37,269 bases of DNA from Bacillota bacterium (GTDB taxonomy: Bacteria; Bacillota; Sulfobacillia; Sulfobacillales; Sulfobacillaceae). Made by a program: the position numbers and the translations under genes. Shown here in pieces: positions 26,105 to 26,356 of this stretch. The stretch's first letter is position 1, and every line of letters begins with the position of its first letter. The notes under the pieces are model-generated. The model saw only the letters and a list, made by a program, of their open reading frames with translations. It was not told the DNA's origin and made no database searches. The stretch lies in assembly GCA_021806205.1 (NCBI GenBank), contig JAJZXX010000064.1:1-37269 (forward strand), read 5' to 3'.

Positions 26105-26356
26105 TCAAAATCCCAACGCTCTTTCCAAGTCGGTCTTCTTGTAGCCGATAATCACTTGGCGTTGGTCATTTTTTTCGATAACCGTGGTGGGTGTTCCCAT
26201 GGATCCGAGTTTCGCGAGGTCGTTTCCATAGTTGGGATTGTCTCCAAGATCCCGCTGTTCAAAGGGGATGCCTTTTTCCCGCAGCCACGCTGCTTCTTGA
26301 CGGCAAGCACTTCACCCGGGTGCCGTATACACAATCACGTTGGTAGTTTGATCCAT
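26105..26356 (-). CDS. glutaredoxin/NrdH-like protein with in-frame UGA at the redox-active site: candidate selenoprotein (UxxC)
   Basis: Minus-strand translation MDQTTNVIVYTAPG[UGA]SACRQEAAWLREKGIPFEQRDLGDNPNYGNDLAKLGSMGTPTTVIEKNDQRQVIIGYKKTDLERALGF*; RBS GGGAGGG 8 nt before ATG; UGA at 26312-26314. Confidence 0.75.
26281..26293 (-). promoter_or_regulatory. bSECIS-like hairpin core downstream of the in-frame UGA
   Basis: Minus strand GCAGC-GTG-GCTGC, apical loop 23 nt after UGA, with symmetric outer TGCC…GGCA pairing. Confidence 0.5.

What the first reader, a model, noticed from the sequence alone, without database searches (positions are those of the whole stretch)
26105..26356. Unannotated candidate selenoprotein: glutaredoxin-like gene with UGA in place of the first active-site cysteine
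Seen in sequence: on the minus strand an 83-codon frame (RBS GGGAGGG, ATG at 26356, terminal TGA at 26105-26107) has only one internal stop, a TGA (26312-26314, codon 15), exactly where the first Cys of a glutaredoxin/NrdH CxxC belongs: VIVYTAPG-[UGA]-SAC-RQEAAWLREKGIPFEQRDL. The rest of the fold is intact, including the cis-Pro segment GTPTTVIE and a C-terminal VIIGYKKTDLERAL. The supplied ORF track missed the gene and shows only unrelated ORFs here. Established knowledge: Sec replacing a redox Cys (UxxC) is the classic signature of thioredoxin-fold selenoproteins, and bacterial Sec-glutaredoxins are known. Inference: the TGA is decoded as Sec. A chance nonsense mutation hitting precisely this codon in an otherwise intact gene with RBS and terminator is less likely, but not excluded.
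Basis: partly seen in the sequence, partly recalled or inferred. Interest (0 to 1): 0.92.

Follow-up and report, generated by a model that had tools for sequence, protein, structure and literature searches.

The report
Selenocysteine glutaredoxin in a Sulfobacillus relative
This is a real, conserved small redox gene whose internal UGA codon is almost certainly read as selenocysteine instead of stop; selenocysteine glutaredoxins were already known, but this branch, found across the acid-loving Sulfobacillus group, matches no curated family model and ordinary ORF calling does not show it.

Summary
The minus-strand frame 26356-26105 is an 83-residue glutaredoxin with one in-frame TGA, at the first active-site Cys (UxxC). 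The same genome has tRNA-Sec, SelA, SelB and SelD (itself with UGA). Relatives carry the gene: 35 distinct sequences have TGA and 6 have TGC/TGT at exactly this codon. Sequence after the UGA is under purifying selection (dN/dS 0.03-0.28 where computable), and gene order is kept in four congeners. The TGA sequences share a covarying hairpin at +16 to +34 (91% of pairs formed; 19 double changes against 4.6 in shuffles) that the Cys versions have largely lost: a bacterial SECIS. The isolate Sulfobacillus harzensis has an orthologue with UGA (72% identity), so a sequencing error or decaying gene is practically excluded. The genome has two more genes of this clade and a YruB-type glutaredoxin, all with UGA. 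Sec-glutaredoxins are known, and the best structural match is clostridial cGrx1. This is a new, lineage-specific subfamily of a known kind, below every NCBIfam cut-off. Redox partner and substrate are unknown; neither a GCS2 enzyme nor BshA was found, so glutathione is an unlikely reductant.

The parts
26108..26356 (-). Sec-glutaredoxin coding sequence, 83 residues, UxxC active site
26105..26107 (-). terminal stop codon TGA
26312..26314 (-). UGA codon 15, read as selenocysteine (first active-site position)
   Evidence: aligned with TGA or TGC/TGT in homologues
26303..26305 (-). resolving cysteine codon (Cys18 of UxxC)
   Evidence: invariant
26278..26296 (-). bacterial SECIS-like hairpin, nt +16 to +34 after UGA; in the window the paired core is GCAGC-GUG-GCUGC (26293-26281)
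   Evidence: covariation in 34 UGA sequences; not supported in Cys homologues
26364..26370 (-). ribosome-binding site GGGAGGG
   Evidence: sequence
26022..26053 (-). terminator-like stem-loop (13 bp, 6-nt loop) followed by CCTTTTCC
   Evidence: z = -4.9; not listed by the simple scan

Best explanation
The gene encodes a small selenocysteine-containing glutaredoxin-like thiol/selenol-disulfide oxidoreductase. During translation SelB, bound to the hairpin just after the UGA, delivers Sec-tRNA (anticodon UCA) to codon 15. The selenol of Sec15 attacks a disulfide of a substrate; Cys18 resolves the mixed selenenyl-sulfide; the oxidised UxxC pair is then reduced again, probably by a thioredoxin reductase-type or NrdH-like route rather than glutathione. 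Shown here: the frame, the conserved UGA/Cys exchange, the covarying hairpin, the Sec machinery and purifying selection. Inferred: actual Sec insertion, the redox chemistry, the reductant. Not known: the substrate (a Sec-peroxiredoxin is one candidate).
For: Sec machinery in the same genome: tRNA-Sec over cut-off and called by ARAGORN, SelB 356.7 bits, SelD 358.4 bits with its own UGA, SelA 555 bits. 35 distinct homologous sequences with TGA and 6 with TGC/TGT at exactly this codon. S. harzensis DSM 109850 orthologue with TGA, 72% identity. Conserved gene order in G002, G005, G006 and G007. dN/dS after UGA 0.03-0.28 where dS is finite. Hairpin: 91.2% pairs formed, 19 cells changed on both sides vs 4.6 +/- 1.6 shuffled (0/500), all slides worse; Cys homologues 62.5% and no covariation. 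UGA copies associate with SelB presence (38/48 vs 3/13 genomes, Fisher p = 0.0003; relatedness not corrected). Sec use in Sulfobacillus is already reported: PrxU (PMC7409299), formate dehydrogenase (PMC4378227).
Against: No protein-level evidence. Two relatives, G019 and G025, have UGA copies with an intact hairpin but no SelB or tRNA-Sec was found; draft gaps or foreign contigs are likely but unproved. In the window alone the hairpin is not stronger than many synonymous recodings of the same peptide (17% as stable); its support comes from the family. The dN/dS values rest on short alignments with near-saturated dS.
Confidence: 0.95

Rival explanations
1. Pseudogene: an ordinary Cys-glutaredoxin inactivated by a nonsense mutation (or a sequencing error) at the first active-site codon.
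For: A single stop in an otherwise intact frame looks the same in one genome; truncated relatives do exist (L064 and L071).
Against: The same TGA is kept in many species across genera and families of one order, with selection continuing after it, covarying hairpin, isolate genome with the same codon.
Confidence: 0.01
2. The UGA is read by some other mechanism (near-cognate read-through giving Trp/Cys, or UGA reassigned genome-wide).
For: Read-through of UGA is possible in principle; no protein data exclude it.
Against: UGA also serves as the normal terminator of this gene; UGA occupies a redox Cys position in several Sec-type genes of the genome and the Sec pathway is complete.
Confidence: 0.02
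3. The protein is a Sec protein but with a more specific role than general disulfide reduction: for example an NrdH-like donor for the ribonucleotide reductase encoded about 5.4 kb away (31719-36614), or a Spx/ArsC-like regulator or reductase.
For: Weak profile matches to NrdH (31.8 bits) and Spx (28.3 bits); NrdJ-type gene nearby, also near the orthologue in G002; Spx and NrdH among sequence and fold matches.
Against: All below curated cut-offs; best full-length structural match is glutaredoxin cGrx1; the family has several paralogues elsewhere in the genome.
Confidence: 0.15

Closest known systems
Selenoprotein glutaredoxin (PF00462, UxxC), e.g. cGrx1 of Clostridium/Alkaliphilus oremlandii (Kim et al. 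2011, cited in PMC13188914)
   Same: Glutaredoxin fold, UxxC motif at the same place, SECIS just after UGA; cGrx1 (7c10, 7c12) is the best structural match (28% identity, TM 0.73-0.75) and a sequence match over almost the whole length. That native cGrx1 bears Sec is from the cited literature and my knowledge.
   Different: Only 28-29% identity; separate clade with E-x-AWL and TPTTVI...IGF motifs; this genome has no detectable GCS2-type glutathione enzyme.
YruB-family glutaredoxin-like proteins (TIGR02196)
   Same: Best NCBIfam match, 51.8 bits over nearly full length
   Different: Below the cut-off of 88.55; the genome has a separate true YruB-type protein, also with UGA (91.1 bits)
UXX-star (seleno)protein families (NF041211, NF041212, NF047338)
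   Same: Small Grx-like Sec proteins
   Different: 21.5-36.8 bits against cut-offs of 66-100
NrdH-redoxin (TIGR02194; 4hs1)
   Same: Small Grx-like protein independent of glutathione; weak sequence and fold match
   Different: 31.8 bits vs cut-off 85.75; partner not shown

Membership tests
Bacterial selenoprotein | In-frame UGA aligned with a Cys codon in homologues | tested here: met
   35 UGA and 6 Cys sequences at the same codon
Bacterial selenoprotein | Stem-loop with a small apical loop containing G immediately downstream of UGA | tested here: met
   GUG loop at +24 to +26, covarying stem; criterion from PMC1088965
Bacterial selenoprotein | selA, selB, selD and tRNA-Sec in the genome | tested here: met
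Bacterial selenoprotein | Se found in the protein | not testable with these tools
   needs mass spectrometry or 75Se labelling
Glutaredoxin domain (PF00462) | Score over the gathering cut-off | tested here: met
   34.1 vs 22.9 bits
Glutaredoxin domain (PF00462) | Thioredoxin fold with UxxC/CxxC before the first helix and cis-Pro TP motif | tested here: met
   (pLDDT 74, two-sequence alignment; moderate confidence), TP invariant, fold matches
Glutaredoxin (functional sense) | Reduced by glutathione | tested here: inconclusive
   no GCS2 match in an 87% complete genome; other routes to glutathione not searched
YruB family TIGR02196 | Score over curated cut-off | tested here: not met
   51.8 vs 88.55
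UXX-star families | Score over curated cut-off | tested here: not met
NrdH | Score over curated cut-off | tested here: not met
   31.8 vs 85.75

The most novel reading that the evidence does not exclude
A distinct subfamily of Sec-glutaredoxins, largely confined to the Sulfobacillus order and present in up to three copies per genome, works without glutathione or bacillithiol as part of a selenium-based redox relay (Sec-glutaredoxin to Sec-peroxiredoxin or sulfur-metabolism enzymes) in aerobic, metal-stressed acidophiles.
Probability: 0.3. Interest if true: 0.5.

Novelty: new member of a known kind. Interest (0 to 1): 0.36.

Why it matters
It adds a clear, covariation-backed selenoprotein subfamily that ordinary ORF calling does not show and that no curated NCBIfam model captures. 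It shows Sec in several glutaredoxin copies in a group reported, in the papers found here, for Sec-PrxU and Sec-formate dehydrogenase. Cys and Sec versions within one order, with the hairpin largely lost in the Cys versions, make a neat natural comparison of Sec/Cys exchange.

Tried and rejected
Pseudogene or read error: rejected, conserved UGA and selection. Genome-wide UGA reassignment: rejected, UGA terminates the same gene. Filing under YruB, UXX-star or NrdH: rejected at curated cut-offs. Fold of the window hairpin alone as proof: rejected, not unusual against synonymous recodings; family covariation was used instead. The first extraction of homologues ignored strand and is void for minus-strand loci; redone. 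The first regex scan was mis-specified; redone. A plasmid search found only distant glutaredoxins, below 40% identity. The Kim 2011 paper itself is not held.

Full report
OBSERVATION. The frame is as described: minus strand, ATG at 26356, GGGAGGG seven bases upstream, one internal TGA at codon 15 (26314-26312), terminal TGA 26107-26105, 83 residues. It scores over the Pfam Glutaredoxin cut-off and is followed by a strong terminator-like stem-loop. It lies between a convergent acyltransferase-like gene (24910-26013, +) and a co-oriented membrane protein gene (26502-27200, -) (family names judged from the translations, not tested).

SELENIUM MACHINERY. The window's own assembly (3.77 Mb, 254 contigs, 87% complete) has tRNA-Sec (72.2 bits, cut-off 47; ARAGORN calls it SeC, anticodon tca), SelB, SelA and SelD. 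SelD has an in-frame UGA in SGUGCKLG, so it is probably a selenoprotein too.

COMPARATIVE EVIDENCE. 51 of 61 relatives have a homologue. In the aligned clade, the position is TGA in 35 distinct sequences and TGC/TGT in 6; no other stop lies inside. A scan of named genomes found Sulfobacillus harzensis DSM 109850 with the same TGA at 72% identity, which places the window in the Sulfobacillus group. Four congeners keep the neighbours: acyltransferase on one side and the membrane protein on the other (in G005 the membrane gene is about 5 kb away). After the UGA, dN/dS among five congeners is 0.03-0.28 where dS is finite; dS is near saturation, so these are rough. On a protein tree the Sec/Cys state needs 5 changes (bootstrap 4-6), at least 3 forced by well-supported branches (few columns). 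UGA copies occur in 38 of 48 genomes with SelB and 3 of 13 without (Fisher p = 0.0003; with homologue-bearing genomes only, 38/44 vs 3/7, p = 0.02). Relatedness is not corrected for.

SECIS. A stem at +16 to +34 with a GUG loop, consensus GAGAAAGC-GUG-GCUUUCUC, is formed at 91.2% of cells in 34 UGA sequences, with 19 cells changed on both sides (shuffles 4.6 +/- 1.6, 0/500) and a covariation score of 0.267 against 0.04-0.07 when slid. RNAalifold independently returns the inner five pairs. In 6 Cys homologues pairing is 62.5% with no covariation, although one of them (L039) keeps much of a stem. Residue choice follows: UGA sequences mostly have AWLS, or AWLQ/R with a matching change on the other side; Cys versions have AWLL, AWLN, AWLQ or AWLA. 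The loop with a G fits the bacterial consensus described in PMC1088965. The stability in the window alone is not exceptional.

IDENTITY. NCBIfam matches (YruB 51.8, UXX-star 36.8, NrdH 31.8 bits) are all below cut-off, as are those of four other clade members tested (proteins 1, 2, 3 and 5). A model from two sequences (pLDDT 74) gives the glutaredoxin fold; best PDB matches are cGrx1 7c12 and 7c10. A profile of the clade searched over 300 genomes of the phylum gave strong hits only in the own genome; all others had E of 7e-20 or weaker; most close relatives were not in that sample. The genome has two further clade members with UGA (C23, C194) and a YruB-type one (C143).

MECHANISM. Sec15 as attacking selenol and Cys18 as resolving thiol follow from established glutaredoxin chemistry; neither was shown. 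No GCS2 and no BshA over cut-off was found in this incomplete genome, so a thioredoxin reductase-type reductant is the better guess. A Sec-peroxiredoxin-like gene is present (C169, motif PVUTNE), and PrxU is up-regulated on ore in S. thermotolerans (PMC7409299), making a Sec-to-Sec relay, as reported for a clostridial Sec-glutaredoxin and MsrA (Kim 2011, cited in PMC13188914), a reasonable hypothesis.

NOVELTY. Sec-glutaredoxins have been listed since 2005-2006 (PMC1088965; PMC1794560) and appear as an established selenoprotein family in 2022 and 2026 reviews. Neither review mentions Sulfobacillus, and the two papers holding both 'selenoprotein' and 'Sulfobacillus' are not about it by title. 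New member (new subfamily) of a known kind.

OPEN POINTS. G019 and G025 have UGA copies without detectable SelB or tRNA-Sec. No protein data.

Noticed in passing
window 31719-36614 (+): 1631-aa ribonucleotide reductase-like ORF that seems to carry two intein-like insertions, next to an NrdR-like gene (31222-31722); judged from the translation only.
   Followed up: no
L054 1107-2301 (G000:C143): Two more selenoprotein candidates side by side: a Trx/PDO-like protein with VTPTUPYC and a YruB-type glutaredoxin with TTQTUPHC, near rhodanese-like and molybdopterin-oxidoreductase-like genes.
   Followed up: partly
L092, L093, L095 (G000:C169, C250, C243): Peroxiredoxin-family frames with internal TGA; C169 has a PVUTNE motif typical of Sec-peroxiredoxin. 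The TGAs of C250 and C243 were not judged.
   Followed up: partly
L043 (G025), L059 (G019): UGA glutaredoxins with intact hairpin in drafts where neither SelB nor tRNA-Sec was found: assembly gap, foreign contig, or recent loss of the pathway.
   Followed up: partly
L064 1981-2172 (G022:C2, 249 kb contig) and L071 (G006:C153): The same truncated clade copy in two species: N-terminus and UGA gone, hairpin kept; looks like a pseudogene, possibly on a mobile replicon.
   Followed up: partly
G006:C33 and G006:C142: Two tRNA-Sec genes in one assembly (7% contamination estimate).
   Followed up: no
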